Shown here piece by piece: positions 18,873-55,285 of a stretch of 64,000 nt of DNA. Numbering within the stretch: position 1 is the first letter of the stretch; each line of letters opens with the position of its first letter. This DNA is from a virus, in IMG/VR virus record IMGVR_UViG_3300005293_000009, positions 1-64,000 of that record; one strand, written 5' to 3'. The notes under the pieces are model-generated. The model did not search any database, was not told where the DNA came from, and saw only the letters and a list, made by a program, of their open reading frames with translations. The position numbers were made by a program, and so were the translations under genes.

Positions 18873-18901
18873 GGCAGTAATCCAACGAAAGGACAGCCAC
18901 C

Positions 18902-22950: not shown

Positions 22951-22954
22951 GGGG

Positions 22955-22984
22955 TTGACAAACCTAACCAGAAAGACGTAGACT
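22955..22984 (+). promoter_or_regulatory. Leaderless promoter of lipoprotein gene
   Basis: TTGACA and TAGACT with an 18-base spacer; the -10 is six bases before the ATG at 22991. Confidence 0.85.
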
Positions 22985-22990
22985 AAGAAC

Positions 22991-23407: not shown

Positions 23408-23417
23408 TCCGACCCCT

Positions 23418-23451
23418 AAGTAGCCCCGGTCTTCGGATCGGGGCTACTTCC
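23418..23451 (+). terminator. Hairpin terminator after lipoprotein gene
   Basis: A perfect eleven-base stem (AAGTAGCCCCG / CGGGGCTACTT) with a ten-base loop. Confidence 0.85.
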
Positions 23452-23461
23452 ATATCTGGAC

Positions 23462-23491
23462 TTGACACCGATGCGATCATCGGTATAGACT
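23462..23491 (+). promoter_or_regulatory. Promoter of NAMPT gene
   Basis: TTGACA with TAGACT at 18 bases, or TATAGA at 16. A leader of about 35 bases ends in AAAGG before the ATG at 23530. Confidence 0.8.
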
Positions 23492-23529
23492 GAGTACAGA
23501 CCGAAAGACAATCAACCAGAAAGGCTCGC

Positions 23530-25047: not shown

Positions 25048-25408
25048 GACGAATTCGCTCAAGGAAGTTCCGTACGGTACAAAGCGGCTGAGGGTGGGGA
25101 AGGACCTTGTGGAGTACCCTACCCTCCTGGAGTACACCTACGGCAGTCCGGAGTATCCCTCTGCGGGTGTCACCTACAAGGACAACCTGCCGTTCGAGGC
25201 CACGCTGAAGATCGTCTCTCTTGAGCGAGGACGTTCGGCGGCACGATTCTGGTTTCAAGATATTGATACCGGCACCTACTATCCGTTCTTCGGGCAGACC
25301 CTTGTTGATATGTTGGAGCGTACTGTGGCAGATCATGGTGTCGTTGAGGGCACCTGGATTGCCGTCAAGAAGGGTTCCAACTACGGCATCGAACTGTACA
25401 CCCCCTGA
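25040..25408 (+). CDS. Hypothetical protein coupled to NAMPT
   Basis: 122 residues, beta-rich, with A-R-F-W-F-Q-D-I-D-T-G near residue 70 and no membrane segment. It overlaps the NAMPT stop. I do not recognise the family; a small modulator of the NAD+ enzymes is only a guess from position. Confidence 0.75.
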   Translation: MAKTNSLKEVPYGTKRLRVGKDLVEYPTLLEYTYGSPEYPSAGVTYKDNLPFEATLKIVSLERGRSAARFWFQDIDTGTYYPFFGQTLVDMLERTVADHGVVEGTWIAVKKGSNYGIELYTP

Positions 25409-25410
25409 GG

Positions 25411-25439
25411 TTGACACCGGTTACTGGAGACGCTAGGCT
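25411..25439 (+). promoter_or_regulatory. Leaderless promoter
   Basis: TTGACA and TAGGCT with a 17-base spacer, six bases before the ATG at 25446. Confidence 0.85.
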
Positions 25440-25445
25440 TTAATC

Positions 25446-25565
25446 ATGCGAAGACGACTTCGAATCTGGATTTACTGGCTGAGCGAGAACGCCGCAGCCG
25501 TCCGGGGGGATTTCCCCACAGCCCGCTATTACCTCGCCAGGAGAATAGAAGAGGAAAACAAGTGA
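25446..25565 (+). CDS. 39-residue basic peptide
   Basis: Begins M-R-R-R-L-R-I-W-I-Y-W-L and ends E-E-E-N-K. It is the first cistron of a leaderless transcript and overlaps the next gene by GTGA. It may be a real peptide with an amphipathic basic/aromatic helix or a translation-coupling leader. Confidence 0.65.
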   Translation: MRRRLRIWIYWLSENAAAVRGDFPTARYYLARRIEEENK

Positions 25566-25756
25566 CACGTTTTGAAGTAGTCTTTGAGACCGCGCTCTAC
25601 CGCTCGGTGTTCGTTGAGGCCGCTGACAGAGAAGAGGCGGAGACGCTGGCGGTGGAGAATCACTTCCCCGCCAGTGAGCTTCCGCTGCCTCCGGGGTACG
25701 ATCTGAACCCCGACTGGTTTGTTGAAGGAACGGTGCGGGTGCGCGATGACGACTGA
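25562..25756 (+). CDS. Small hypothetical protein
   Basis: 64 residues from a GTG overlapping the previous stop. F-E-V-V-F-E-T and V-F-V-E-A-A-D-R-E-E-A-E form a beta-alpha pattern; a short ferredoxin-like or PepSY-like fold is possible. Unknown function. Confidence 0.7.
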   Translation: MTRFEVVFETALYRSVFVEAADREEAETLAVENHFPASELPLPPGYDLNPDWFVEGTVRVRDDD

Positions 25757-25934
25757 CACCGAACTGCATTCGTCCGACGAGTGGTCGATTCTGCTCGATG
25801 TTCTCGTGGTCAATCCTGACGGATGGGATCGCTCGAACTTTGCACAGGACTGGGCTCGCCCCATTACCCGTCCGGAGTTCATCCGGAAGGTTGGGATGAG
25901 CACCATCGACATGAGAGGGCGGCGGGGCCGATGA
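25746..25934 (+). CDS. Small hypothetical protein
   Basis: 62 residues from the ATG at 25746, overlapping the previous gene by 11 bases and the next by four. Trp-containing, otherwise unremarkable; it ends in a basic R-G-R-R-G-R tail. Confidence 0.65.
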   Translation: MTTDTELHSSDEWSILLDVLVVNPDGWDRSNFAQDWARPITRPEFIRKVGMSTIDMRGRRGR

Positions 25935-26116
25935 CTGATGAGAAGCCTGTAGCCCTCGGCTGGGTAGACGTGGACCAACTTGCCGCACGTATTGAGCGGG
26001 AAGTAGAGCCCTCATTTCTGGAACTGGTTTACGGCAACCCCGCCAACACCAGAACCGTCGAGTCCCTGCTTCAAGAGGTTTACCGCCAGAGGGGGTGCCA
26101 TGTCGGACGTAGGTGA
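25931..26116 (+). CDS. Small hypothetical protein
   Basis: 61 residues, coupled by ATGA to the gene before it and overlapping the next by 17 bases. Helical, with the pattern L-A-A-R-I-E-R-E. Unknown. Confidence 0.65.
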   Translation: MTDEKPVALGWVDVDQLAARIEREVEPSFLELVYGNPANTRTVESLLQEVYRQRGCHVGRR

Positions 26117-26351
26117 CGTGAACCAGGCGCATACGCCTGGCAGCGGTGGCACCCTCGGAGACGAGCTTGAGACCTACCTGCTCGCTGCCCAGCGTGTCCA
26201 TGAGGGCGGCACCATGCTTGACCGTATGGTGTTCCAGTCGCTCCACAACGCGCAGAATGTGATCACCCTCGGCAAGATCATCACCGCTCTTGAGGAAGAG
26301 AATCGGACGCTGATGGAAATGCTGTACGGGGGACTTGACGGAATGGGTTGA
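26100..26351 (+). CDS. Small helical hypothetical protein
   Basis: 83 residues, last gene of this five-gene set of small coupled cistrons. The C-terminal half (A-Q-N-V-I-T-L-G-K-I-I-T-A-L-E-E-E) is a likely helix or short coiled coil. Unknown. Confidence 0.7.
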   Translation: MSDVGDVNQAHTPGSGGTLGDELETYLLAAQRVHEGGTMLDRMVFQSLHNAQNVITLGKIITALEEENRTLMEMLYGGLDGMG

Positions 26352-26363
26352 GTGCGGTAGGCT
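26335..26363 (+). promoter_or_regulatory. Leaderless promoter of pnuC operon
   Basis: TTGACG and TAGGCT with a 17-base spacer, six bases before the ATG at 26370. Confidence 0.85.
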
Positions 26364-26369
26364 TACTCC

Positions 26370-26522
26370 ATGGCAACCAACGAGTTCAGGTCCAGTAACG
26401 GATTCACCGTCCGCACCGTGGACTACCAACACATCTACATCGACAACGTGTACCTCAACCGCCCACACCTGGAGGCGCTTTTGGAGTACGCCGAATATCT
26501 GAGAGAGAATCCAATCCGATGA
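26370..26522 (+). CDS. 50-residue protein upstream of pnuC
   Basis: First cistron of a leaderless message, coupled by ATGA to the PnuC gene. It contains T-V-D-Y-Q-H-I-Y-I-D-N-V-Y. As before the prs-like gene, a tiny first cistron precedes the enzyme gene. Confidence 0.7.
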   Translation: MATNEFRSSNGFTVRTVDYQHIYIDNVYLNRPHLEALLEYAEYLRENPIR

Positions 26523-27448
26523 GCATTCCCCACATCCCCACGCCGGTCTCTGGCGTCGTGCGATTCGTCAAGAACGATATCTTCATCGCGTTTGTGGTCG
26601 CAATCGTCCTGTCGGGGGCGACCTTCGCACTCGGCTTCGCGCTGCACTGGTTCCCGAACGGGGTCAACGGCTTCGAGGTTGCCGCCGCCACGCTGAACTA
26701 CGGCGCGACCTACCTCAGCATCAAGCAGCGCCGGTTCGCCTACACCCTCGGCTTCGTGGCGTCTGCCTTCTGGGCGGTCGCGTACTACCAGTACAACCTG
26801 CTTGGCTCCGCGATCCTCTCGCTGTACCTTGTGGGTCAGCTTATCTATGGCTACTTCCGCTGGGGTCCTGACGGCAAGACGCGCCCGGTGCATAAGTTCC
26901 AGTGGAAGTGGGCGTGGGCCTATGCGCTCGCTACCGTGCTCACCTACGCGGGTGCGGTCGGTATCATTACCCTCTTCGGCGGCAGCTTCGCCTTCTGGGA
27001 TGGTGCCATTCTGGTGCTGACTATCCTCGCGCAGTTCCTCCTGGACAACAAGGTGCTCTCGTCTTGGTACGTGTGGGGTGCCGTCAACGTGATCGGTGTC
27101 GTGCTCTACACTACGGCAGGCGCTCCGTTCGCTGCGGTCCAGCAGTTCATCTTCGGCGTGGCTAACATCTGGGGCTTCATTGCCTGGAAGAAGAGCATGG
27201 AAAATTCGGGTGAAAATTTTTCTGAAAGGGCCATTTCAAAATCAGAGCCCAAAGAAGAATCTCGTCTAATGTTCATAGATGAATCAACGGGCGAGAGCCC
27301 TCTCGTCAAGCGTCTCGTGGGTGAGCAGTACAGCGGAAGCTCGAAGGTGGACGCCACATTCCACCCGCACACGTCTCTGTTCCTGATGAGCGGTGAGAAG
27401 CCGATCATCCGTGACGCGACCACCGAAATCGATCAAATCAAGCCCTGA
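26519..27448 (+). CDS. pnuC: PnuC-type nicotinamide riboside transporter
   Basis: 309 residues with about seven membrane segments in residues 20-225. A-A-T-L-N-Y-G-A-T-Y-L-S and Q-F-L-L-D-N-K-V-L-S-S-W-Y-V-W are typical PnuC blocks. It should move nicotinamide riboside through the cytoplasmic membrane by facilitated diffusion, trapped inside by phosphorylation. The NadR-like gene next to it has the needed kinase domain. Residues about 226-309 form an extra soluble Ser/Glu-rich tail not usual in PnuC; its coding part has an AT-richer stretch near 27200-27280. Confidence 0.9.
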   Translation: MSIPHIPTPVSGVVRFVKNDIFIAFVVAIVLSGATFALGFALHWFPNGVNGFEVAAATLNYGATYLSIKQRRFAYTLGFVASAFWAVAYYQYNLLGSAILSLYLVGQLIYGYFRWGPDGKTRPVHKFQWKWAWAYALATVLTYAGAVGIITLFGGSFAFWDGAILVLTILAQFLLDNKVLSSWYVWGAVNVIGVVLYTTAGAPFAAVQQFIFGVANIWGFIAWKKSMENSGENFSERAISKSEPKEESRLMFIDESTGESPLVKRLVGEQYSGSSKVDATFHPHTSLFLMSGEKPIIRDATTEIDQIKP

Positions 27449-27450
27449 GC

Positions 27451-27479
27451 TTGACACACGAAGGGCCGTCAGGTAGGCT
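27451..27479 (+). promoter_or_regulatory. Leaderless promoter of nadR-like gene
   Basis: TTGACA and TAGGCT with a 17-base spacer, six bases before the ATG at 27486. Confidence 0.9.
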
Positions 27480-27485
27480 GAGAGC

Positions 27486-28535
27486 ATGACAAAAGCTTTC
27501 GTCCTCATGACCGCTCTCCCACCGACCTTTGGTCATCTGGACCTGATCCAGTTCGCCGGTAATCTGTTCGTGGACCAGGTGACTGTGTTGCTGAATACTG
27601 ATCCTCGTGAGCCGCTGGCGAGAGAGCGCTACTACGCGCTGTCTCTGGCTGTCAACAAGCTTGCCCTTGGTGGGAAGATTCATGTGCTGTGGCAGAACGA
27701 AGAGGTCCAGCAGGAGCCTACCGACCCTGACGACCAAGCTTTCTGGGATGACTGGGTAGCTAACCTCGTCCGCTTCGGCTTCGAGCCGGGTGACTACATC
27801 GTAGCGTCTGAGCAGTACGGTGTGCGTCTGGCGGCGGAAGCTCGTGGGAGATTCATGCCTTACGACCGGGACCGCTGGGTGCGCTATACCAAGGGCACCA
27901 AGGCGCGTGAGGATTACCTTCAGGAGTGGAGCAACATTCTCCCCGAGTTCCGTCACAACCTACAGAAGAAGGTGACAATCTTCGGTGCGGAATCCACCGG
28001 CAAGACGACACTGACAGAATCGCTAGCTAGTGACGCATTCTTCGGGATGTCCACTAAGCTGTTCGAGTGGGCGCGTCCGTTCCTGGAAATGACCGGGCCG
28101 GAAGTTACTCGGGAAGGTATGTACCGAATTTGGGAGGGGCAGTATGCTCTCCAGGCTTCGACCTACGAGAATGCGCTGAAGCCGCTCGTGATTCAGGATA
28201 CCGACCTCTTCACCACCATCGGATTCTGGGAGGACTGGGAACCGGATACGGTGCCGCAGGGCATCTACCCGAGCGCTCGCGAAACGCAGAGCGACCTGTA
28301 CATCCTGACAAAGAGCAACATCCCGTTCGAGCACGACATCCTGCGGTATGGGGGAGACGAGCGTCAGACGAGTGATGAGTACTGGCTTGACATCTGTGCG
28401 CGTCATGGGCTAAACTACATAGTACTGGACGGTGACGATCCGAAGGAACGCCTCATGGAGGCTTCTGAAGCGATCTGGGACCTTCTGGAAGACAACCCCC
28501 TGACCTACAAGCGCATCGGAGCAGAATATGCCTGA
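27486..28535 (+). CDS. nadR: NadR-like NMN adenylyltransferase / nicotinamide riboside kinase
   Basis: 349 residues in two domains. The N-terminal M-T-A-L-P-P-T-F-G-H-L-D is a nucleotidyltransferase H-x-G-H-like block, here with H-L-D in place of the second His. The C-terminal domain has G-A-E-S-T-G-K-T (167-174), a P-loop of the NadR kinase type, and Q-D-T-D-L-F-T-T near 240. It would adenylate NMN to NAD+ and phosphorylate nicotinamide riboside brought in by PnuC. No repressor helix-turn-helix is present, unlike enterobacterial NadR. The altered H-L-D should be checked for activity. Confidence 0.88.
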   Translation: MTKAFVLMTALPPTFGHLDLIQFAGNLFVDQVTVLLNTDPREPLARERYYALSLAVNKLALGGKIHVLWQNEEVQQEPTDPDDQAFWDDWVANLVRFGFEPGDYIVASEQYGVRLAAEARGRFMPYDRDRWVRYTKGTKAREDYLQEWSNILPEFRHNLQKKVTIFGAESTGKTTLTESLASDAFFGMSTKLFEWARPFLEMTGPEVTREGMYRIWEGQYALQASTYENALKPLVIQDTDLFTTIGFWEDWEPDTVPQGIYPSARETQSDLYILTKSNIPFEHDILRYGGDERQTSDEYWLDICARHGLNYIVLDGDDPKERLMEASEAIWDLLEDNPLTYKRIGAEYA

Positions 28536-33847: not shown

Positions 33848-34214
33848 ACTCTTCCTGCTTCTCCCCTTCACACTGATGTCCCTGTCAGCGGGCAAGATCG
33901 CCATAGAACACCGCCGTGCGCTTCGGGGTGGTATCGAGATTCCTCGTACGGGTCGGCTGAGGGCTGTCGCCTCGCTGGACCGTGAGCGCCAGAAGGCTAT
34001 CGAAATCGGTAAGCGTGAGCTTGCGGTTCGTGACGCTGAAGTTTGGGATTGGGCCTTCGAGCGGGCGATAGAGGATGCCGACCCCCAGCGGGCCATTGCG
34101 GAGAGTCGGACGGACGACCGAGCCTGCTACTGCCCTGAGTGTGTAGGGTCGAACGGTGAACCCTACATCGGACTCCCTTGGATTGCCGTTGATCGCCCCT
34201 ATCGGATTGGGTAG
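33840..34214 (+). CDS. Hypothetical protein with Cys pair
   Basis: 124 residues with a hydrophobic N-terminus (about 1-18), a helical Arg/Glu-rich middle and C-Y-C-P-E-C near residue 98, which may bind zinc. Unknown. Confidence 0.7.
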   Translation: MVELFLLLPFTLMSLSAGKIAIEHRRALRGGIEIPRTGRLRAVASLDRERQKAIEIGKRELAVRDAEVWDWAFERAIEDADPQRAIAESRTDDRACYCPECVGSNGEPYIGLPWIAVDRPYRIG

Positions 34215-34216
34215 CG

Positions 34217-34522
34217 GTGCCTATGACTGAAGATCAGATCACCGCTCTCTGTGAGAGTATGCTTCGTGACTGGGGGCTGGACCGCTGGATCATCCGGTGG
34301 GAAGATACGCTGCCTTCCTTCCAGGGTAACCTTGCGGGACACTGTAGCTGGGACGAGCGTGTCATCCGACTGTCTCGGGAGTACGTGCTGGATTACGAGT
34401 CCAGCGATGTGGTGGCGATTCTTCAGCATGAAATTGCACACGCTCGGACACCTGAAGAGAAGTTTCATGGTCCGAGATTCGATTGGAACCTAAGAGAAAT
34501 GAGGTCAGGCTGTGCCACGTAA
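34217..34522 (+). CDS. SprT-like metalloprotease
   Basis: 101 residues counted from the GTG at 34217; an ATG two codons in is an alternative. H71-E-I-A-H75-A-R is the zinc protease motif, and H-G-P-R-F-D-W follows as the third ligand region. It resembles the SprT/Wss1 minimal fold but lacks the zinc ribbon. Relatives cut DNA-crosslinked proteins; a second, longer SprT-like gene is at 52120. Confidence 0.8.
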   Translation: MPMTEDQITALCESMLRDWGLDRWIIRWEDTLPSFQGNLAGHCSWDERVIRLSREYVLDYESSDVVAILQHEIAHARTPEEKFHGPRFDWNLREMRSGCAT

Positions 34523-34691
34523 AGATGGACGACCGCGCATGCCGGTGAAGCTGGGACTGGACCCGCTGCCCTGGGTAGACAAGGAAGACGGCGAAGGTCG
34601 CTGGATTCGTCAGGCTCACCCGGACGGGTGGACCGAGTTCGAGCCGCGTGACGGCTACTCCAAGAATGAAGAGGACTACTATGGCTCGTAA
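34512..34691 (+). CDS. 59-residue hypothetical protein, GTG start
   Basis: From the GTG at 34512, inside the end of the SprT-like gene, to a TAA inside the next gene. It starts V-P-R-K-D-G-R-P-R and has W-I-R-Q-A-H-P-D-G-W. Both ends overlap neighbours, as is usual for real genes here. Confidence 0.65.
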   Translation: MPRKDGRPRMPVKLGLDPLPWVDKEDGEGRWIRQAHPDGWTEFEPRDGYSKNEEDYYGS

Positions 34692-34887
34692 GAGTGCCCC
34701 GCGCCTGCCGGTGACTGGACGATTCTTCTTCTCGGTAGGTAACTACCAGGAGAATGCGGAACTGGACCCGGAGTTTGTGGACCTGTATGCGCGTAATGCG
34801 CAAGGCATCTGGTTCGTGAACGGACTAAAGACTGACGAAAACGAAATCCCGGACGACCTCTGGGAAGTAAGGACCGTGCAACGGTAG
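34681..34887 (+). CDS. Small hypothetical protein
   Basis: 68 residues from the ATG at 34681, beginning M-A-R-K-S-A-P-R. The later part holds a likely beta strand pair. Unknown. Confidence 0.7.
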   Translation: MARKSAPRLPVTGRFFFSVGNYQENAELDPEFVDLYARNAQGIWFVNGLKTDENEIPDDLWEVRTVQR

Positions 34888-34894
34888 AATGGTG

Positions 34895-34900
34895 TACAGT
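34895..34900 (+). promoter_or_regulatory. Leaderless -10 without clear -35
   Basis: TACAGT is six bases before the ATG at 34907, but no TTGACA-like box is found at 16-18 bases upstream. Confidence 0.45.
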
Positions 34901-34906
34901 AAGAGC

Positions 34907-35254
34907 ATGAGCAACACGTCAAACAACAAGCCCGTAGAAACCGTAGACGCTTTCGTCCTTCAGGAGTGCATCCGCATCGCCAACGATGTGACGGAGAGTG
35001 TGGAGCGTCGGCGTAAAGCGTCAGCGTGGGCGAAGAAGCTGGTCGAGTCTGCGGGCTCTAACTGGGAGGGCGGCGGGCGTACCGTGGCGGAGAAGGCTGG
35101 GGTCGAGGTAGACCCTAAGGCTCCGGGCGGACAGCGCGTAGACAGCGGGAGCGGCTATGCCGGGGTCTCGCGTAACAGTGGGCGTGTGGCGGACATCGAG
35201 GCGGGGCAGCTTAGCTCCGAGCTTCACTCGGGACAGCGGGTGTCTCGTGGGTAA
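34907..35254 (+). CDS. Hypothetical protein
   Basis: 115 residues. The N-terminal part is helical (V-T-E-S-V-E-R-R-R-K-A), the C-terminal 60 residues are Gly/Ser-rich and probably disordered. The next gene starts at a GTG in its last codons. Confidence 0.65.
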   Translation: MSNTSNNKPVETVDAFVLQECIRIANDVTESVERRRKASAWAKKLVESAGSNWEGGGRTVAEKAGVEVDPKAPGGQRVDSGSGYAGVSRNSGRVADIEAGQLSSELHSGQRVSRG

Positions 35255-35540
35255 GCGCGTCAAATTCAAGGATGGTGGGGTGCTCCTTTTCGGAAAGTAC
35301 TTCGTGGATGAGGACCTAGCGTTCTGGACCGGGTTCGTGCTGTTCATCCTGTCTATGGGGCTGTCTGTGGTCGCCGCCGCTACCGATTGGTGGGTGCTGT
35401 ATATCCCGTTCTTCCTTATTATCGGGAGTGTGGGGTTGGCTGTTGTGTGGGCTGTCCTCTCGTTCTTCTGGGGCAGATGGGCTGAAGTGTTTCGTAAGGG
35501 GCGTCGGCGGGGACTTGACACCGAGGCTGAAGACCGGTAG
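35247..35540 (+). CDS. Two-helix membrane protein, GTG start
   Basis: 97 residues from a GTG at 35247, with hydrophobic segments at about 28-48 and 52-75. The end W-A-E-V-F-R-K recalls the W-V-E-I-F-R-K end of the gene at 37157, so it may be a distant relative of the membrane pair there. Confidence 0.7.
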   Translation: MGKRVKFKDGGVLLFGKYFVDEDLAFWTGFVLFILSMGLSVVAAATDWWVLYIPFFLIIGSVGLAVVWAVLSFFWGRWAEVFRKGRRRGLDTEAEDR

Positions 35541-35543
35541 GCT
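35515..35543 (+). promoter_or_regulatory. Leaderless promoter
   Basis: TTGACA and TAGGCT with a 17-base spacer, six bases before the ATG at 35550. Confidence 0.88.
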
Positions 35544-35549
35544 GATCGT

Positions 35550-35876
35550 ATGAGCATGCTACGGAATCTATTCGTTGACGACGAGCGGACCCCGCCTCCG
35601 GGAATGGACTGGGAAGTCGTCAAGACGGCAGGAGACGCCTATTCGGCGCTTTCTGGCGCAGAGTATGCCGTAGTCTCCCTAGACTACGTGCTGATCGGCT
35701 GGGAGAGCGGCTTCGATGTGGTGTGGTGGATGCATACCAACAACCGCTGGCCTACGCACGAGCTTCGCGTACATTCGTCCTCCTATATGGGGCGCGCGCA
35801 GATCATCGAGTTCGCTCAGGCGCATGCGCCTAAGGGTCTGCGGGTCATCGATGCTTCTGCTGAGCGGGGGCTGTGA
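35550..35876 (+). CDS. cREC-type receiver-like domain protein
   Basis: 108 residues. L-F-V-D10-D11-E-R-T-P-P and V-S-L-D-Y-V-L near residue 45 fit the cyclic-phosphate-processing receiver domain (cREC), a CheY-like fold found beside RNA-repair enzymes. It adds to the RNA-repair set at 2-6 kb. Assignment is by motif only. Confidence 0.7.
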   Translation: MSMLRNLFVDDERTPPPGMDWEVVKTAGDAYSALSGAEYAVVSLDYVLIGWESGFDVVWWMHTNNRWPTHELRVHSSSYMGRAQIIEFAQAHAPKGLRVIDASAERGL

Positions 35877-36292
35877 TGCATTTGTGGGTTTCGAAGACCG
35901 GACTGGTCCGAGAGGACTGGCGGATCAGGCACGGCACTAAGAGTCGTGTGGCGGCAGGTTGCGAGTGCGACCTATGCAAGAAGGCGGCGCGCTCATTCGA
36001 GATTGCGTCCAAGCAGCCTAAAGAGGCGTCCGCCCCGCTCGCGGTCGGCATGACCGATGTCGGCTGGATCGTGCTACAGATTCAGCGTATGGCGGAGGAT
36101 CGTTCGATCCCTGCCGCTAAGCGTGCGCGTGCCCGCTGGTGGTACCAACGGCTGACGTACGCAGACTCCGCGTCGGCTACCTCCATCGTCCAGGAGAGCG
36201 GCGGGCGTCGGCGCTCGCATAACGCGAGGCGTCTCGTGGCGTCGGACCTAGAGTACAGCGGGGACTACAAGCGCCCGCTGATTCAGACTTGA
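35873..36292 (+). CDS. Hypothetical protein with Cys pair
   Basis: 139 residues from the GTG at 35873, or 138 from the ATG at 35876. C-E-C-D-L-C near residue 30 in a basic context suggests zinc and nucleic-acid binding; the rest is basic and helical. W-R-I-R-H-G-T near the start resembles small HNH-like or WhiB-neighbour proteins but is not conclusive. Confidence 0.65.
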   Translation: MMHLWVSKTGLVREDWRIRHGTKSRVAAGCECDLCKKAARSFEIASKQPKEASAPLAVGMTDVGWIVLQIQRMAEDRSIPAAKRARARWWYQRLTYADSASATSIVQESGGRRRSHNARRLVASDLEYSGDYKRPLIQT

Positions 36293-36317
36293 CAGTTGGA
36301 GCGGGAGCGGGTAGGCT
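36289..36317 (+). promoter_or_regulatory. Leaderless promoter
   Basis: TTGACA and TAGGCT with a 17-base spacer, six bases before the ATG at 36324. Confidence 0.9.
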
Positions 36318-36323
36318 GTAGGC

Positions 36324-36569
36324 ATGACAACTCGAACGCACCCGCTTCTTCGCATCAAGCGATTCTTCCAGGTGGCCGTCAAGCATTACCCCTGGACCTT
36401 CTGGACCGTAGTGGTGATTCTGGCGGCGATCCACATTCCAGTGCTGATCTGGCCTCTGGAGATGGGGGCCGTGGCCCTGGGCCTCTGGGCAGTCATCGTC
36501 GGTGCGACTCTTTTCGTTGGGCTGATCTGGAAGATCGTCACCGAGATTGCGGACGGGGGAGGACGCTGA
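36324..36569 (+). CDS. Two-helix membrane protein
   Basis: 81 residues with hydrophobic segments near 25-45 and 48-70. The stop overlaps the next start by one base. Confidence 0.75.
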   Translation: MTTRTHPLLRIKRFFQVAVKHYPWTFWTVVVILAAIHIPVLIWPLEMGAVALGLWAVIVGATLFVGLIWKIVTEIADGGGR

Positions 36570-36946
36570 TGGGCTGGGCGGGCGGCGGTAAGCGTGTCAT
36601 CGACATGCGCGCGTTCATTGAGAACGAGCTTGCGAAGTGGGAGCTTGGTGCGCTGGTGGCGGTCGTGGGTCCGGAGAAGACGACTGACGACTGGTTCAAG
36701 CTGACTATCAAATACCGCCCTCCGGGCAACGAGCACCGGAAGGATATCCAGTTCTACGACAAGAACATCGTCGTCAACATCGGCTATAGTCGGAAGGCTG
36801 GCTACTGGAACCGCACCTTCATCCGGAAGGCTATCCGGAACGCGGGACAGGAGTTCCAGGAAGAGAAGGTGGCTGCGGTCGTGTGGTCTTCCATGCCGCG
36901 TGAACTGACGACCGGTCGTGACGAGGATGGACGGTTCGCGCTGTGA
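36569..36946 (+). CDS. Basic hypothetical protein
   Basis: 125 residues from the ATG at 36569 (TGATG junction). Rich in Lys/Arg, with W-F-K-L-T-I-K-Y and F-I-R-K-A-I-R-N-A. Possibly nucleic-acid binding; unknown family. Confidence 0.75.
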   Translation: MGWAGGGKRVIDMRAFIENELAKWELGALVAVVGPEKTTDDWFKLTIKYRPPGNEHRKDIQFYDKNIVVNIGYSRKAGYWNRTFIRKAIRNAGQEFQEEKVAAVVWSSMPRELTTGRDEDGRFAL

Positions 36947-37125
36947 GACGGTGCGGATGGTGTGGTGTCGAGCTTCGGTGGTGGCAACTAAACCACTGCC
37001 GAGTTTGCGCCTTCTCGCTGCGGTATGACACGTCTTCGCCGCCTTGTCGGCACGCTTCGCGCTGGGATGGTGTGCCTGACCACGCGCCTTGGTCCTTCAA
37101 GCGCCCTGAGTATCCAATCACTTGA
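36943..37125 (+). CDS. Zinc-ribbon protein, GTG start
   Basis: 60 residues with C-G-W-C and C-R-V-C pairs near residues 4-7 and 19-22, a short zinc ribbon, then a Pro-rich tail. It overlaps the preceding stop (GTGA). Confidence 0.75.
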   Translation: MRRCGWCGVELRWWQLNHCRVCAFSLRYDTSSPPCRHASRWDGVPDHAPWSFKRPEYPIT

Positions 37126-37150
37126 CATCCCTGCGGGGATAGAGTAGGCT
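37122..37150 (+). promoter_or_regulatory. Leaderless promoter
   Basis: TTGACA and TAGGCT with a 17-base spacer, six bases before the ATG at 37157. The -35 overlaps the preceding stop. Confidence 0.9.
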
Positions 37151-37156
37151 GTAGAC

Positions 37157-37501
37157 ATGACAAACAAGAACAACCTCATCTTCTACGAATCGGGGCACTA
37201 CACCCGAGAGGCGTACGGTCATGTGGAAGAGTACCACCCCGCCGTCTTCGTGGTGGCGGGAGGGCGTGCGCGCGTTCCTGTGATGCTGCTCTGGCTGACG
37301 TGGAGCCTCATCCTCGCCGTGCTCTTCGTGATCGACACCTGGACAGGTATTGCGAGCGGGGACATCGCTACGGAGTTCGTCTGGAACCTGTCCCTGTACT
37401 GGGTGCTCGGTCTGGTGGCGGTCTTCGTGATCTACTGGCCGCTGAAGTTCGTCTGGTACGTCCTGTCGTGGTGGGTCGAAATCTTCCGGAAGGCGATGTG
37501 A
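37157..37501 (+). CDS. Membrane protein, first of a tandem paralogous pair
   Basis: 114 residues with an N-terminal soluble part (L-I-F-Y-E-S-G), A-G-G-R-A-R-V-P-V-M-L-L-W-L-T-W, two membrane segments (about 43-60 and 75-95) and F-V-I-Y-W-P-L. The next gene has the same layout and blocks. Likely inner-membrane; function unknown. Confidence 0.8.
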   Translation: MTNKNNLIFYESGHYTREAYGHVEEYHPAVFVVAGGRARVPVMLLWLTWSLILAVLFVIDTWTGIASGDIATEFVWNLSLYWVLGLVAVFVIYWPLKFVWYVLSWWVEIFRKAM

Positions 37502-37848
37502 TGATTACTCGTAAGAAGAATGACTTCCTCTACTACGAGCCGAGCGGGTTTACGCTGAACGGCCTGCACCTAGGTGAAAGGTTCACTGCAAGGCTCGTCC
37601 TCGCTGGCGGCAGGGTGAAGGTGCCCGTATCGCTGCTGTGGGCAACCTGGGCGTTGATCGGTGCGGTAATCTTCACCGTGGAGACGGTGGTGGGCTTGAA
37701 CACCGGAGTGGCGTTCTATGGTCCCTGGTGGACCGTCACCGGCTACTACCTGCTGTTCACCCTCGGTTGGTTCGTCATCTACTGGCCCATCTACGCGGTG
37801 ATCTTCATCGTTCGGACGTGGGTTGATGTTGTCCGGAGCGCGCTGTAG
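37501..37848 (+). CDS. Membrane protein, second of a tandem paralogous pair
   Basis: 115 residues from the ATG at 37501 (TGATG). Shares L-Y-Y-E-P-S-G, A-G-G-R-V-K-V-P-V-S-L-L-W-A-T-W and F-V-I-Y-W-P-I with its neighbour. Codons differ widely, so the duplication is old and the pair has been kept. Confidence 0.8.
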   Translation: MITRKKNDFLYYEPSGFTLNGLHLGERFTARLVLAGGRVKVPVSLLWATWALIGAVIFTVETVVGLNTGVAFYGPWWTVTGYYLLFTLGWFVIYWPIYAVIFIVRTWVDVVRSAL

Positions 37849-37854
37849 TCGCGC

Positions 37855-37883
37855 TTGACGTTCGTCACTAAAGAGAGTAGACT
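37855..37883 (+). promoter_or_regulatory. Leaderless promoter
   Basis: TTGACG and TAGACT with a 17-base spacer, six bases before the ATG at 37890. Confidence 0.85.
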
Positions 37884-37889
37884 GTAGTC

Positions 37890-38036
37890 ATGATCGCACT
37901 TATCCTCATCCTAGCATTCATCGCGGGACTCATCGCCTACTTCGTGGATGGTCGCCTGCCGGTGGCTCTCTCGGTGGCGGGCATCGTCGGGTTGGCAGCA
38001 ACCGTAGCGTCGGTGATCCTGGATGTCTTCGTCTGA
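37890..38036 (+). CDS. 48-residue two-helix membrane peptide
   Basis: Almost wholly hydrophobic, with F-V-D-G-R-L-P as the turn between two short helices. Overlaps the next gene by 14 bases. Confidence 0.7.
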   Translation: MIALILILAFIAGLIAYFVDGRLPVALSVAGIVGLAATVASVILDVFV

Positions 38037-38295
38037 GGGCAGCTTGGCTAAGCCGGTGTGGACCCCGCCCTACTGTGACACCTTCTGGGGTTCGCACGGA
38101 TGCTCGCTGGACCGAGGCCATTCGGGGCCGTGCCTGTGCATCACCGTGTTCTATGACGAAGACGGTCAGATTGAAGAGACCGTCTGTGACGGTAACTGCG
38201 CTCCGCCGTACTTCGGGCCGGATACGGAGTTCTTCTCCAACCATGGGATGCCTACACCTGAGGCTACACTTAGGGCGGCGCATAATGGCAACTAG
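38023..38295 (+). CDS. Cys-rich hypothetical protein
   Basis: 90 residues with six Cys and several His in its first 65 residues (Y-C-D-T-F, G-C-S-L-D-R-G-H, C-L-C, V-C-D-G-N-C), probably a metal-binding fold. Unknown. Confidence 0.7.
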   Translation: MSSSEGSLAKPVWTPPYCDTFWGSHGCSLDRGHSGPCLCITVFYDEDGQIEETVCDGNCAPPYFGPDTEFFSNHGMPTPEATLRAAHNGN

Positions 38296-38452
38296 AATCT
38301 GGAGCCCGCCTGACTACTGGTACAACCAGCCCTCTGACGGACCTGCGGAGGGGGAGAGTCGTGCGGCGTGGAAGAACCGCACCTTCGCCGCGCACTACGG
38401 CAACCCTGGGATGTTCACCCTGGCGGAACTACTGGAAGATGGAGACCGGTGA
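38285..38452 (+). CDS. Small hypothetical protein
   Basis: 55 residues from the ATG at 38285. W-S-P-P-D-Y-W-Y and A-A-W-K-N-R-T-F are aromatic-rich. It overlaps both neighbours. Confidence 0.65.
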   Translation: MATRIWSPPDYWYNQPSDGPAEGESRAAWKNRTFAAHYGNPGMFTLAELLEDGDR

Positions 38453-38814
38453 GCGGGTCGGGGTGGGACTGGGACGCCATTGCTGCGTCCGATTATCCGG
38501 TGGTGGTAAATCCTGCCGCGCTACGGCGGGACATGGTGTACTGCGAGTTCTGGACGCTGAGCCTCCCTTCGGAGTCGTACGGCTACGTGACCGGGCTAGT
38601 CATAGAGTGGTCGGAGTGGCTACGGGTGCGAGAGCAGCGAGCGGGACCCCTGCGTATCGACCTGAGCGGGTACGGGCTGGAGGGTGCGGAGCTTTACCCC
38701 TTCATGCGTGCACGCTTCTCGCTGTGGACCGCTCCGGAGAACCCGCGCTGGCCGCGTACAGTCGTGGCGGTGTGGACGCTGGACGGCGGCTTCAAAAAGC
38801 CGGGTCGGGCTTGA
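38449..38814 (+). CDS. Hypothetical protein, GTG start
   Basis: 121 residues from a GTG overlapping the previous stop (GTGA). Trp-rich, beta-type protein, no family recognised. Its end overlaps the promoter that points into the AT-rich island. Confidence 0.7.
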   Translation: MSGSGWDWDAIAASDYPVVVNPAALRRDMVYCEFWTLSLPSESYGYVTGLVIEWSEWLRVREQRAGPLRIDLSGYGLEGAELYPFMRARFSLWTAPENPRWPRTVVAVWTLDGGFKKPGRA

Positions 38815-38839
38815 CAAAAGCGGCCCGGTGAACTAAAAT
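38811..38839 (+). promoter_or_regulatory. Strong promoter firing into the AT-rich non-coding island
   Basis: TTGACA and TAAAAT with a 17-base spacer, one of the closest matches to consensus in the window. No start codon lies at leaderless distance; the first probable gene starts about 290 bases later. Transcription may make a long leader, a non-coding RNA or a replication primer. Confidence 0.85.
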
Positions 38840-39136
38840 AACTAATCAACAGTCCCCCCAACAGGTAGCAGACTATTGGAAACTAATAAAACTAAACTAG
38901 TGTTTTAGATATTAGTTTTTAGTGGTAGGATATTAGTTAGAGGCCGATTTGCAATCTGGCTGAAAAATGGGGTAAGCTCTTCTAATATAATTAATTAACT
39001 TAAACTTATATACTTATCCGACTACGTACCGGTAGATTAGGAAAAAACGCTACTCCCTATTTCTACTGCTCTTCCTTAGGGAACGTGGTCGGAAAGGTTT
39101 ATTAGTTTTTGTCAGTATACACCAATGGAGATAGAA
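38837..39136. other. AT-rich island with ATTAGT/ACTAAT repeats: candidate replication origin
   Basis: About 300 bases without a gene and far richer in A+T than the rest. ACTAAT or its complement ATTAGT occurs at least five times, the ATTAGT copies near 38927, 38951 and 39099 and ACTAAT copies near 38841 and 38882. TTAATTAA and other AT runs lie near 38990-39010. It sits downstream of a strong promoter. Repeated short sites next to an AT-rich melting region are typical of origins, but no initiator gene is recognised beside it. Confidence 0.5.
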
Positions 39137-39664
39137 ATGAGTGAAGTAATTGACCCGGTAACGGGGATGACCCAGGCGGACCTGGATGCGTTCGTGGAGG
39201 CTCGGAAGGCGAAAGGTCCGAAGCGTGATGCGCGCGTGTGTGTCTGCGGTCACGGTGCCGGTGCACACTTCTCGGTGACGGGGCTTGGCGGGCCTTCGGA
39301 CATCGCAGAGCGTGAAGCGGGAACGATTCGGTGCCAGGCTGGTAAGACGCCGTGCGAGTGCCAGAAGTTTACGTACGTGCTGCGTTCGACTGACATTCGG
39401 TCGTTCATCCAGAAGACGACAGGTCCCGGAGCGGAGCATGCGCTGGCTAAGGGGATCGCGTCTACCCTTGGACGTGGGATCGTGGTGGAGTGGCGCGAGG
39501 ATATCGCCTGCTTCTACTGCGGTAAGGCTCCTTCGGAAGTTGGTGCACTGATTCCGATCCCGTACAATGAGCGTGGTGGTGAAGCGTTCCGTTCGACTGT
39601 GGAGAATCGTCTGCATTGCGCGGGGTGCCGGATCGAGATTCAGAAGCAGGTCTCTGGCGTATAA
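39137..39664 (+). CDS. Multi-cysteine zinc-binding protein
   Basis: 175 residues from the ATG at 39137, with GGAG six bases upstream; an ATG four codons before is an alternative. Cys groups: V-C-V-C-G-H near residue 34, C-Q...C-E-C near 65-75, F-Y-C-G-K near 130 and H-C-A-G-C near 163, suggesting two or three zinc sites. First gene after the candidate origin, so a replication or regulatory role is possible. Family unknown. Confidence 0.75.
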   Translation: MSEVIDPVTGMTQADLDAFVEARKAKGPKRDARVCVCGHGAGAHFSVTGLGGPSDIAEREAGTIRCQAGKTPCECQKFTYVLRSTDIRSFIQKTTGPGAEHALAKGIASTLGRGIVVEWREDIACFYCGKAPSEVGALIPIPYNERGGEAFRSTVENRLHCAGCRIEIQKQVSGV

Positions 39665-39665
39665 T
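39660..39665 (+). promoter_or_regulatory. Leaderless -10 TATAAT
   Basis: A perfect -10 six bases before the ATG at 39672, overlapping the preceding stop. The -35 region is weak. Confidence 0.6.
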
Positions 39666-39671
39666 AGCTTC

Positions 39672-39968
39672 ATGGAAACCGTTGAGCTTCAGGTGCCTGG
39701 AGGCAGGCGTGTAAGTGCGCTTCGCCTTCAGGACCTTCCTGCTGAGCATGTGCTGGCGTTCATGTCGCTGCCGGTGGGGGTCAAGGAGCATATGGGCGTG
39801 AAGCTATTCAAGCTGGCGCTAGGCTCTAACGGGGAAGATGTGCTCGCGGGACTGACGTTCGGAGAGCTTGAGTATCTGATGAGCGAATGGTTCCTGTTGT
39901 CGGGTGAGTCGGAGGCGGAGGACCCGGACGGTCGAGGGCTGGGGCTTGACTGGAATCTGATTCCGTAG
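39672..39968 (+). CDS. Hypothetical protein
   Basis: 98 residues with L-T-F-G-E-L-E-Y-L-M-S-E-W near the C-terminus, reminiscent of phage tail assembly chaperones but isolated from tail genes, so I leave it unnamed. Start set by the TATAAT spacing. Confidence 0.7.
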   Translation: METVELQVPGGRRVSALRLQDLPAEHVLAFMSLPVGVKEHMGVKLFKLALGSNGEDVLAGLTFGELEYLMSEWFLLSGESEAEDPDGRGLGLDWNLIP

Positions 39969-39974
39969 TAGTCT
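39946..39974 (+). promoter_or_regulatory. Leaderless promoter
   Basis: TTGACT and TAGTCT with a 17-base spacer, six bases before the ATG at 39981. Confidence 0.85.
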
Positions 39975-39980
39975 TGGGGT

Positions 39981-40181
39981 ATGGCACTCAAACATACTCA
40001 TACACTCAGCGGTACCGGACCCTTCCCGTTCGAATCGCTCTCGGAACTGGTGACCGCTGTATCGGAGGCGGCAGGCGAGAGCCGAGACTGGAAGAATGAC
40101 ATTACTGTCAACCTCCTCACGGAGAACCGAACCGCAGACGGGGTACGCTACCTCGACTGGGAGATTCAGGTTACCTGGTGA
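39981..40181 (+). CDS. Small hypothetical protein
   Basis: 66 residues, with T-H-T-L-S-G-T-G near the start and D-W-E-I-Q-V-T-W at the end; alpha-beta pattern. Unknown. Confidence 0.7.
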   Translation: MALKHTHTLSGTGPFPFESLSELVTAVSEAAGESRDWKNDITVNLLTENRTADGVRYLDWEIQVTW

Positions 40182-40282
40182 GCTTGCTGGCGGTGGCGGC
40201 TATCCCTCTGCTCGTTGCCGTGATCGCGACTGTTCACGGTGCGGCACTTCATCGGAGTCTTGACAAGCCTGCCTTCGGCTGA
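40178..40282 (+). CDS. 34-residue membrane peptide, GTG start
   Basis: A GTG overlapping the preceding stop begins a short hydrophobic peptide (L-L-A-V-A-A-I-P-L-L-V-A-V) with a basic tail. Too short to be certain. Confidence 0.45.
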   Translation: MSLLAVAAIPLLVAVIATVHGAALHRSLDKPAFG

Positions 40283-40288
40283 TAGCGT
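40260..40288 (+). promoter_or_regulatory. Promoter with leader
   Basis: TTGACA and TAGCGT with a 17-base spacer; the TTG start at 40321 is about 30 bases downstream. Confidence 0.75.
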
Positions 40289-40320
40289 TTAGGCAACTCA
40301 ACAGAAAGTGAAATGAAACC

Positions 40321-40572
40321 TTGACAGAAGCACTCGGCGGGGAAATCCTCGCTACAATCCTCTGGTTCGTACTCGGAGATATCGCCGTGTTCGGCGTGGC
40401 GATGCTCGTGTTCGGACTGTTCGTACTCATCGCGTCGGCTACGGATGCGGAGTGGGTTGCCGGTCTTGGCGTCCTGTTCGCATGGATCGCGGCGATTGCA
40501 ACGGTCGTGATCGTGTGGTGGAACATCATCACGCACGCACTCGCGGCTGGTTCGCTCATCTGGGGGTGGTAA
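40321..40572 (+). CDS. Three-helix membrane protein, TTG start
   Basis: 83 residues from the TTG at 40321. Hydrophobic segments near 9-20, 24-40 and 48-78. No strong ribosome site. The size suits a holin-like or small membrane protein, but there is no lysin beside it. Confidence 0.65.
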   Translation: MTEALGGEILATILWFVLGDIAVFGVAMLVFGLFVLIASATDAEWVAGLGVLFAWIAAIATVVIVWWNIITHALAAGSLIWGW

Positions 40573-40574
40573 CG

Positions 40575-40811
40575 GTGGCTCGGTACGTTCACGGCAGTAG
40601 TGAGCTTCTGGATCACGCGGCGGCGGCTAAGTCGCTGTCGGAGAAGGAAGAGTGGCTTAGACTCTCCAAGAGAGTGTATGCCCTCGGTCCAAGCATCCCG
40701 AGAGGCGCTACCCTCGAAGGGGCGCAGCAGGATGTGGATAATGCTCGCATTGTTCTCGCTGCGGCGTACAAGCTATACACGAACCCGTTCGGGGTGGTGA
40801 AGACGGTCTGA
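40575..40811 (+). CDS. Small helical protein, GTG start
   Basis: 78 residues from the GTG at 40575, just after the membrane protein. A-A-A-A-K-S-L-S-E-K-E-E-W-L-R-L-S-K-R is helical. Its stop overlaps the next start (TGATG). Confidence 0.65.
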   Translation: MARYVHGSSELLDHAAAAKSLSEKEEWLRLSKRVYALGPSIPRGATLEGAQQDVDNARIVLAAAYKLYTNPFGVVKTV

Positions 40812-41110
40812 TGGTTGACCGACTGGTGTTTAGTGTGGACGGGGTTTGGGAGACGCGCGCAGTCGCGCCGTACACCATACCGTCTAACGGATTCATCCAA
40901 CGCGGGGACGCCTGGGTCAACGCTAGTTCGATCACTGTAGTTGCTCTTGAGCATATTCGCCACAAGCCTCTTTACATCCGGATAGAAAGTTGTCAGGGAC
41001 GCCGTACGGATTGGGGCTTCGTGGGTGGCGGACGACCGTTTGACATCCGCGCGGGAGATACGATCCAATTCCAGCCTGGTAATCTAGAATCGAGGATTCA
41101 CTATTACTGA
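40811..41110 (+). CDS. Hypothetical protein
   Basis: 99 residues, beta-rich, no recognised motif. Coupled to the gene upstream by a one-base overlap. Confidence 0.7.
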   Translation: MVDRLVFSVDGVWETRAVAPYTIPSNGFIQRGDAWVNASSITVVALEHIRHKPLYIRIESCQGRRTDWGFVGGGRPFDIRAGDTIQFQPGNLESRIHYY

Positions 41111-41270
41111 CGACGATGCAGAACTTGAACGGCTCGCGGCTGTGATCCGTGCGAACATGCACTGGAAGAAGATGATGGAGGACGGCTACATGTCTGTCGG
41201 CTTTAACACACCGGAAGAGATTGCGCAAGCTGTCTGGGACTCCGGGTTCCGTCCAGGGGTTGACAAGTAG
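41103..41270 (+). CDS. Small protein, uncertain start (ATT or GTG)
   Basis: A frame of 55 residues is open from an ATT at 41103, overlapping the preceding stop, to a TAG at 41270; a GTG at 41142 gives 42 residues. D-D-D-A-E-L-E-R-L-A-A-V-I-R is a good helix and the composition is coding-like. ATT starts are rare, so the N-terminus is open. Confidence 0.5.
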   Translation: MTDDDAELERLAAVIRANMHWKKMMEDGYMSVGFNTPEEIAQAVWDSGFRPGVDK

Positions 41271-41288
41271 CCTCATGGCCGCTATAGT
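41260..41288 (+). promoter_or_regulatory. Leaderless promoter of VWA gene
   Basis: TTGACA and TATAGT with a 17-base spacer, six bases before the ATG at 41295. Confidence 0.9.
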
Positions 41289-41294
41289 TGAAGT

Positions 41295-43040
41295 ATGACA
41301 GGCCACGAGACGCAGCTTCAGCGCATGACCGCAAACCCCGACTGGGTTCGCGTCAGCGGGGACCTGTCCATCCTCTGCAACATGTGGGCAGGTCGCCGCG
41401 ACCTTCAGGTGTACTTGGGTCGTGACGGTGGGAAGGGGAAAGCTTCGGCGTTCTTCGACCCTCGCAGCGCACAGATCGAAATCAATTCGGAGGATGCGTT
41501 CGGTAAGGGTTCGGACGGTTCGCTCGTTGGGGACCTGACTTCTCGCATGGAGCTTGCGAAGTATCCCGTTGCAGGAGGTCTTTCCCTGCACGAGAGCGGA
41601 CACGCACGGCACAGCACCGCAGACTGGGAGGAACTTCGTAAGTCGTTCGACTCGGAAGCGGAGTGGACCGTGTTCGTCCGTCTGGAAGAGACGCGCATCG
41701 AAGGCCTTATGGCCCTCACCTTTCCGCAGGATGTCGGATACTTGCGGGCTAGCACTCGGGAACTGCTGATGGGCGATGACCCTGCGGGGTGGACCGGACG
41801 TGGTGCGGCGCAGCTTCTTGTTGGACGTGCGGAAATCGGTGTACTGGAAGCGTCGGATGTTCAGGCGGTAGAGACTGCACTCGTATCTGCGGGGTGGTCG
41901 CCGTCTGTGTTGACGCGCCTGCGTGAAATCGTGGGAGAGTTTCTTCTGCTGGTTGACCGTGGCGATGATCTTGAGATTATGGTTGCGCTCGCGAAGGAGC
42001 TTCACGCGCTGATGCCTGAGGACCCTGCGGGGGATGAAGACGGAGAAGATTCCGGGATGCCGTCTGACTTGGCGGACGCTATTGCGGATGCGCTGGGGCG
42101 TGCGGCTCAGGGTGGGCGACTGTCCGCTATTGAGGCGGGCGACCGTGCGGAGTCCGCGCGTAAGCGTGAAGAGGCTGATGCGGCTGACCGTATCCAGTCG
42201 GAGAATGAAGCGAAGGCTCGCGAAACGTTTACCGATTCTGGTAATGGGACGGCGAAGGTGCCGTCACAACTACGGACTAACCGAGCACCAACAGGGGACG
42301 AGCGTTCTGCGGCGGTTCGTCTGAGTAGAGACCTAGAGAAAGCGAAGTATCGTGACCGGATCGAAACGGAATGGAACACCGACGTACCGCCTGGGAAATT
42401 CAACGGTGGGGAAGCTATGCGTCTGGATGCTGCGCGGAGTGTCGGCGGAGACACCAGTCGTTACAAGCCGTTCCGCACAAAGCGCTACGAGGAAACTGAT
42501 GAGCCGCCGCTGACCGTAGGCATCATGTCTGATGTGTCGGGTTCGATGAGCGCGGTGCAGGAAGCAGTCGGTACGGCGGTGTGGGTGATGAACGAGGCGG
42601 TATACCGTCTGGACCTCGCAACCTGCGCGGCTGTCTACTTCGGAGAGCGCGTCTACCCTGGACTTCGGAAGGGCGAGCACAGCAGTAGGGTGCGTGAGTG
42701 GAACGGGCGTGACGGCTGGGAAGACTTCGATGGGGCGTTCCGTGCGCTTGACGGTGAGCTTGAACTGCTCAACGGTAAAGGCGCACGACTGTTGGTTGTC
42801 GTGTCGGATGGGCAGTACGGATCAACCGTGCGTGTCAATCAGGCTGAGGCTCGTGATCGCTGGGTGCGGACTTGCGTCCAGAATGGTGTGGGTGTAGTCT
42901 GGCTACAGGTGCGAGGGCAGAAGACGCCGGTTGCAGAGGGACCGGGGATTGAGATTGTGAGTGTCGGGACTTCGATCCTGGACGCTATTGGACCGATAGG
43001 ACAAGCTTGCATCCGTGCATTGTCGCACGCTAGCGCATAA
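41295..43040 (+). CDS. VWA-domain protein with HExxH motif (MoxR partner)
   Basis: 581 residues. H99-E-S-G-H103 with a later E-E-T-R-I-E is a putative zinc-peptidase-like site of the CobT/VWA-peptidase kind. The middle (about 235-330) is acidic and Ala/Arg-rich. The C-terminal VWA domain begins near 405 with D413-V-S415-G-S417, the metal-ion adhesion site, and V-V-S-D-G-Q near residue 500. VWA proteins act as adaptors of MoxR ATPases, one of which is at 15485. The target of such a pair in phages is unknown. Confidence 0.85.
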   Translation: MTGHETQLQRMTANPDWVRVSGDLSILCNMWAGRRDLQVYLGRDGGKGKASAFFDPRSAQIEINSEDAFGKGSDGSLVGDLTSRMELAKYPVAGGLSLHESGHARHSTADWEELRKSFDSEAEWTVFVRLEETRIEGLMALTFPQDVGYLRASTRELLMGDDPAGWTGRGAAQLLVGRAEIGVLEASDVQAVETALVSAGWSPSVLTRLREIVGEFLLLVDRGDDLEIMVALAKELHALMPEDPAGDEDGEDSGMPSDLADAIADALGRAAQGGRLSAIEAGDRAESARKREEADAADRIQSENEAKARETFTDSGNGTAKVPSQLRTNRAPTGDERSAAVRLSRDLEKAKYRDRIETEWNTDVPPGKFNGGEAMRLDAARSVGGDTSRYKPFRTKRYEETDEPPLTVGIMSDVSGSMSAVQEAVGTAVWVMNEAVYRLDLATCAAVYFGERVYPGLRKGEHSSRVREWNGRDGWEDFDGAFRALDGELELLNGKGARLLVVVSDGQYGSTVRVNQAEARDRWVRTCVQNGVGVVWLQVRGQKTPVAEGPGIEIVSVGTSILDAIGPIGQACIRALSHASA

Positions 43041-55225: not shown

Positions 55226-55254
55226 TTGCAATGCCGTGCGGATGGGTGTAGGCT
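55226..55254 (+). promoter_or_regulatory. Promoter with leader
   Basis: TTGCAA and TAGGCT with a 17-base spacer; leader ends in GGGAAGGGAACCTAAA before the ATG at 55286. Confidence 0.85.
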
Positions 55255-55285
55255 GGCTTTAGACAGACAGGGAAGGGAACCTAAA

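What the first reader, a model, noticed from the sequence alone, without database searches (positions are those of the whole stretch)
38811..39136. Promoter-driven AT-rich island with ATTAGT repeats: candidate origin
A near-consensus promoter fires into about 300 AT-rich bases with repeated ACTAAT/ATTAGT, with no gene for 290 bases. This combination suits a replication origin with a transcript primer, or a large regulatory RNA.
Basis: partly seen in the sequence, partly recalled or inferred. Interest (0 to 1): 0.7.

Follow-up and report, generated by a model that had tools for sequence, protein, structure and literature searches.

The report
Structured RNA-like island in actinophages
A 300-base AT-rich stretch with no gene, in the genome of a large virus of soil bacteria, appears to encode a folded RNA that recurs next to the same gene in related viruses; its job (RNA regulator or start point of DNA copying) is unknown.

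Summary
TTGACA-17-TAAAAT starts at 38811, followed by the most AT-rich 300 nt of the window and five ATTAGT/ACTAAT copies (0.5 expected). The promoter itself is ordinary: about 45 like it occur in the window. The repeats are partly the arms of a hairpin.

Comparison changes the picture. An AT-rich non-coding island sits upstream of orthologues of gene 39137 (a 175-aa zinc-motif protein) in six Microbacterium-type relatives and in most of ~40 IMG/VR contigs. In Big4 and Cece it is the most AT-rich site of the whole genome. In the window's closest group the last ~165 nt are homologous: a model built without the window finds it at E=1.4e-9. The pairing of this 3' domain covaries (0/500 shuffles). 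Distant relatives carry one long AU-rich stem-loop whose sequence differs but whose pairing is kept, and G-U changes exceed A-C changes on the gene strand.

Best reading: an unnamed, transcribed structured-RNA element (no Rfam match), as stand-alone RNA or long leader; function undetermined. The origin claim is not excluded: GC skew peaks on the element in the window, Big4 and Cece. But the skew does not change sign, no DnaA-type box is present, and no replication evidence exists.

The parts
38811..38839 (+). sigma-70/sigma-A type promoter TTGACA-17-TAAAAT; inferred transcript start about 38846
   Evidence: the same -35/-10 pair at the same place in Big4, Zooman and Cece (TTGACA-17-TAGAAT), degenerate in L002
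38841..38937 (.). four of the five ATTAGT/ACTAAT copies (38841, 38882, 38911, 38932; the fifth is at 39101)
38872..38926 (+). 5' hairpin that takes in the repeats: 38872-38888 pairs with 38910-38926 in the minimum-energy fold
   Evidence: the relatives have their own repeat units (ACTATCC in Cece, GACTAT in L002) in the same left/right arrangement. Covariation for this part was not shown
38960..39126 (+). conserved 3' domain of the candidate RNA
   Evidence: found at E=1.4e-9 (61.7 bits) by a covariance model built without the window; pair counts
38968..39124 (+). closing helix: UGGGGUA (38968-38974) with UACACCA (39118-39124), ending 2 nt before the Shine-Dalgarno sequence of gene 39137
   Evidence: 94% of cells paired, mostly invariant; 6 of 7 pairs in the window
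39002..39108 (+). long helix P1: 39002-39027 with 39083-39108 (core UCCGACUACGU/ACGUGGUCGGA), followed by a T run
   Evidence: in the group alignment P1 has 6 pairs with changes on both sides
39137..39664 (+). gene A1: 175-aa protein, CxCGH...H...C...CxC motif plus a C-terminal pair of CxxC motifs; its orthologue anchors all relatives used here
   Evidence: no Pfam, PHROGs or NCBIfam match to the window protein, no PDB sequence match, AlphaFold pLDDT 85.6, no significant fold match

Best explanation
The island encodes a structured RNA of about 280 nt. Host RNA polymerase starts at the 38811 promoter (inferred). The transcript folds into a 5' repeat hairpin and a 3' domain with a long AU-rich helix, and closes just before the ribosome-binding site of the zinc-motif gene at 39137. 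In this phage group it is either a long structured leader or a separate RNA read through into the gene. In distant relatives the same place holds one very long stem-loop, sometimes with a promoter-like site or a small ORF between it and the zinc-motif gene, so there it looks like a stand-alone RNA. I think an RNA-level function is most likely, possibly bound by the neighbouring protein (inferred, untested). Shown: conservation of position, homology of the 3' domain in five phages, covarying pairs there. Inferred: transcription, RNA ends, protein partner, function.
For: An AT-rich non-coding island lies upstream of the A1 orthologue in Big4, Zooman, Cece, A3Wally, Pumpernickel, DSL-LC01 and most IMG/VR relatives. 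The covariance model built without the window finds the window element, and nothing else in the 64 kb, at E=1.4e-9; Big4 and Cece have one copy per genome. Pair counts on the five-phage alignment: 87.8% of cells paired against 82.3% shuffled, covariation score 0.279 against 0.201, 0 of 500 shuffles reach either, and slid controls give 0.05-0.15. Promoter kept in 4 of 5. Distant relatives keep a long stem, about 20-45 bp, around a core while its sequence changes, with compensatory columns in clades A and B. With helices found by Watson-Crick pairs only, single changes give G-U more often than A-C on the gene strand, against the unpaired baseline: clade A 155:98 against 449:525, clade B 61:32 against 134:169; on independent pairs p = 0.007-0.30.
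Against: The G-U test shows nothing clear in the window's own group (23:32 and 33:26). Fold energy there is only moderately low (z about -3; L002 z -0.5 to -0.8) and neighbouring coding stretches fold as well. The two strands have similar mean z over all loci (-3.9 and -3.7). Only five alignable sequences support the covariation, and its structure came from the same alignment. The models do not find A3Wally, Pumpernickel or distant elements, so wider membership rests on synteny and architecture. No terminator-like site. No expression data.
Confidence: 0.6

Rival explanations
1. Replication origin. The AT-rich island is the unwinding site, repeats and hairpins are initiator or primase sites, and the promoter opens the duplex or supplies a primer (ColE1 RNA II or T4/T7-like). 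An RNA structure and an origin can coexist.
For: Most AT-rich 300 nt in the complete Big4 (0.63, next 0.537) and Cece (0.627, next 0.537) genomes and in DSL-LC01; second or third in two contigs. The 8-kb GC-skew maximum is centred within 250 nt of it in Big4, Cece and the window, and the element bin is at or near the top in the 2-kb profiles of all seven Microbacterium-type sequences. Single copy; repeat units differ between phages but keep the direct/inverted layout.
Against: No sign change of skew at the element in the window, Big4 or Cece; in distant phages sign changes coincide with divergent genes. No DnaA-type box within 1 mismatch in the island or nine relatives, though the window has 21 elsewhere. 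The adjacent gene has no recognised replication domain. Skew peak and AT content may reflect heavy transcription of the small-gene block around it.
Confidence: 0.25
2. A cis-acting leader only: the RNA folds next to the Shine-Dalgarno sequence and controls translation of gene 39137, perhaps by feedback from its own zinc-motif protein. This is one form of the best explanation, listed apart because it would be tested differently.
For: The closing helix ends 2 nt before the Shine-Dalgarno sequence and its 3' strand is nearly invariant; synteny with the same gene in every relative used; no terminator-like site between.
Against: In several distant relatives a small ORF or a promoter-like TTGACA-17-TAGAGT/TAGAAT lies between the element and the gene (promoters read by eye), so cotranscription is not universal.
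Confidence: 0.3
3. Ordinary AT-rich promoter spacer with chance or neutral repeats.
For: The promoter type is common in the window.
Against: Homology and covariation of the 3' domain, island conserved as genome-wide AT maximum, repeat excess P < 1/5000.
Confidence: 0.06

Closest known systems
ColE1 RNA II / transcript-primed origins (PMC5043065)
   Same: promoter, structured transcript, possible duplex opening by transcription
   Different: no evidence of a persistent hybrid, primer or replication here; no antisense RNA identified; skew keeps its sign
GOLLD and ROOL phage RNAs (PMC12286853)
   Same: structured RNAs of unknown function encoded in phages
   Different: those are much longer (659 nt, over 800 nt) and more complex, often near tRNA islands; no Rfam match here and no tRNA in the window
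Highly expressed non-coding RNAs of mycobacteriophages L5, D29 and StarStuff (PMC5712189)
   Same: non-coding RNAs of actinophages with no known function, one of them intergenic
   Different: different phages and positions; expression is proven there and not here; no sequence comparison was made
Structured 5' leaders of phage or bacterial genes (general knowledge)
   Same: fold placed directly before a Shine-Dalgarno sequence
   Different: in distant relatives the fold is separated from the gene by a small ORF or promoter-like site

Membership tests
Rfam 15 families | covariance-model match | tested here: not met
   no match up to E=5 in 38400-39500; in 20 relatives' loci only tRNAs at gathering score
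replication origin | change of GC-skew sign at the site | tested here: not met
   skew positive on both sides in the window, Big4 and Cece; peak, not switch
replication origin | AT-rich unwinding region | tested here: met
   genome-wide AT maximum in Big4 and Cece, window maximum here
replication origin | initiator binding sites (host DnaA boxes tested) | tested here: not met
   none within 1 mismatch of TTRTCCACA in the island or nine relatives; phage-specific initiator sites cannot be judged
replication origin | replication starts there | not testable with these tools
   needs marker-frequency sequencing
structured RNA | compensatory base-pair changes above controls | tested here: met
   0/500 shuffles reach the score; five sequences only, structure derived from the same alignment
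structured RNA | G-U favoured over A-C on the transcribed strand | tested here: inconclusive
   seen in distant clades A and B, not in the window's group
structured RNA | a transcript is made | not testable with these tools
   promoter present; no expression data
cis-acting leader | always cotranscribed with the gene | tested here: inconclusive
   no terminator in the window; small ORF or promoter-like site between in some distant relatives

The most novel reading that the evidence does not exclude
A widespread, undescribed element of large actinophages: one long AU-rich stem-loop RNA whose arm sequences turn over freely while pairing is kept, which also marks (and may prime) the replication origin and works with the adjacent zinc-motif protein.
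Probability: 0.15. Interest if true: 0.8.

Novelty: new variant of a known kind. Interest (0 to 1): 0.5.

Why it matters
If the element is a functional RNA, it is a new family shared by cultured Microbacterium phages and uncultured relatives known from metagenomes, and it can be tested in laboratory strains because Big4, Zooman and Cece are isolated on Microbacterium. If it also marks the origin, it would give an entry point to replication in ~190-kb actinophages.

Tried and rejected
Nucleotide search in phages found no relative; relatives came only through the proteins. The VWA protein gave no IMG/VR relative. No relative of A1 in bacterial genomes. Telomere-resolution site: considered because several distant cores hold ACGCGT-like palindromes, dropped because the arms are not a symmetric inverted repeat around it. 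HNH/guide-RNA pairing (IscB/omega-RNA-like): considered from the C-terminal CxxC motifs; no Rfam match and no significant fold match, not pursued. Terminator at the end of P1: no site found. tRNA or tmRNA: none. Fold energy alone as proof of structure: rejected, neighbouring coding stretches reach similar values in the window. One search ended at its time limit and its L002 row is void (record name clash); L002 was redone.

Full report
What was checked. The finding describes a near-consensus promoter at 38811 that fires into about 300 AT-rich bases with repeated ACTAAT/ATTAGT and no gene. All of that is present. The promoter scores 11 of 12. The island is the most AT-rich 300 nt of the window, 65% against 52.7% for the next. 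Five of the window's eleven ATTAGT/ACTAAT copies lie in it, where shuffles of the island give 0.5 on average and none of 5000 reach five. The promoter is not special: 47 TTGACA-type matches occur in the window against 0.5 expected. The repeats read ACTAAT on the left and ATTAGT on the right, and in the minimum-energy fold a 17-pair hairpin takes in a copy on each arm.

Where it comes from. The window is part of a 66,415-base viral contig. Its proteins resemble those of the ~190-kb Microbacterium phages A3Wally, Cece, Big4, Zooman and Pumpernickel. The gene after the island (start 39137) encodes a 175-aa protein with CxCGH-H-C-CxC and two CxxC motifs. It has orthologues in those phages, in DSL-LC01, and in about 40 IMG/VR contigs at roughly 30-40% identity (L002: 59%). 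The window protein has no Pfam, PHROGs or NCBIfam match and no PDB relative. AlphaFold gives a confident model (pLDDT 85.6) without a significant structural match. One relative's record is named only 'xxxxxxxx' in the tool output and was not fetched.

The island is conserved. Upstream of the orthologue there is a non-coding AT-rich stretch in Big4, Zooman, Cece, A3Wally, Pumpernickel, DSL-LC01, L002 and most distant contigs. Some contigs (L031, L041, L046 and their near copies) have genes there instead. In the complete Big4 and Cece genomes it is the most AT-rich 300 nt of all.

Structure in the window's group. Window, L002, Big4, Zooman and Cece can be aligned. The last ~165 nt share a closing helix (UGGUGUA/UACACCA), a long helix P1 and a 3' hairpin. 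For this structure 87.8% of cells pair, against 82.3% in shuffles; the covariation score is 0.279 against 0.201; no shuffle of 500 reaches either, and slid partners score 0.05-0.15. The structure was derived from the same five sequences, so this favours it. A covariance model from the other four phages finds the window element at E=1.4e-9 and nothing else in the 64 kb. Big4 and Cece each hold one copy. The models do not recover A3Wally, Pumpernickel or the distant elements.

Structure in distant relatives. Most distant loci examined hold one long stem-loop, about 20-45 pairs in the clearer cases, around a core that often contains ACTAT...TAGTWTACGYGTA...ATAGT. Arm sequences differ between phages while pairing is kept; clades A and B show 19 and 10 columns with changes on both sides. 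Two core patterns searched through all of IMG/VR were found 13 times, twelve of them in contigs already known to carry the A1 gene; the thirteenth, L118, was not examined. In a test that starts from Watson-Crick pairs only, single changes gave G-U over A-C 155:98 (clade A) and 61:32 (clade B), while unpaired positions gave 449:525 and 134:169. On independent sequence pairs the odds ratios are 1.3-3.5 with p from 0.007 to 0.30. The window's group shows no such excess. This favours, moderately, a single-stranded function of the gene strand, probably as RNA, in the distant clades.

Is it an origin? For: AT maximum, single copy, and the 8-kb GC-skew maximum centred within 250 nt of the element in Big4, Cece and the window; 2-kb profiles of the seven Microbacterium-type sequences peak at or near it. 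Against: no sign change there; no DnaA-type box in the island or in nine relatives, with 21 elsewhere in the window; no replication gene identified next to it. The skew peak covers about 8 kb of small same-strand genes, so heavy transcription could explain it. In DSL-LC01 and the other distant genomes the 8-kb skew is not maximal at the element. I leave the origin at 0.25.

How it most likely works. Host polymerase starts near 38846 (inferred) and makes a folded RNA that ends or continues at the ribosome-binding site of gene 39137. Whether it acts as a separate RNA or as a leader is open. The promoter-like sites and small ORFs between element and gene in distant relatives argue for a separate RNA there; the closing helix next to the Shine-Dalgarno sequence argues for a leader here. 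The zinc-motif protein is a natural candidate partner, by synteny only.

Limits. Few close sequences; no expression or replication data; fold energy alone is not exceptional in the window. All distant relatives were found through the A1 gene, so the link between element and gene is partly a product of the search. Comparison with D29/L5 RNAs (PMC5712189), ColE1 (PMC5043065) and GOLLD/ROOL (PMC12286853) is by kind, not by sequence. T4- and T7-type origins are mentioned from general knowledge.

Noticed in passing
window 1-64000: 47 near-consensus TTGACA-N16-18-TAnnnT sites, 44 of them on the + strand, against 0.5 expected; many lie just before genes, so many genes seem to have their own host-type promoter.
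   Followed up: partly
window 34000-43000; Big4 about 162-171 kb; Cece about 156-165 kb: Block of strong positive GC skew of about 8 kb centred on the island, the maximum of each of these sequences.
   Followed up: partly
window 22000-28535: PRPP synthetase and nicotinamide phosphoribosyltransferase genes, followed by a nucleotidyltransferase/kinase-like ORF at 27486 (by eye): a candidate NAD salvage module.
   Followed up: no
window 16673-20023: RIIA-like and RIIB-like genes side by side.
   Followed up: no
window 15335-16537 and 41295-43040: A MoxR-like ATPase and a VWA-type protein, often neighbours elsewhere, lie 25 kb apart (MoxR and VWA assignments by eye).
   Followed up: no
window 7309-13332: A 2007-aa ORF made of many short imperfect repeats (SAVSGT-type), probably a tail or surface protein.
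   Followed up: no
window 55226-55903 and 59949-60560: Two ORFs that look like paralogues of each other by eye.
   Followed up: no
L049-L068 (Big4, Cece): The first bases recur at 174695 in Big4 and 168435 in Cece, as expected of terminal direct repeats of about 17.7 and 18.1 kb.
   Followed up: no
L118:4144-4164: The distant core motif in a contig that the A1 protein search did not bring in.
   Followed up: no
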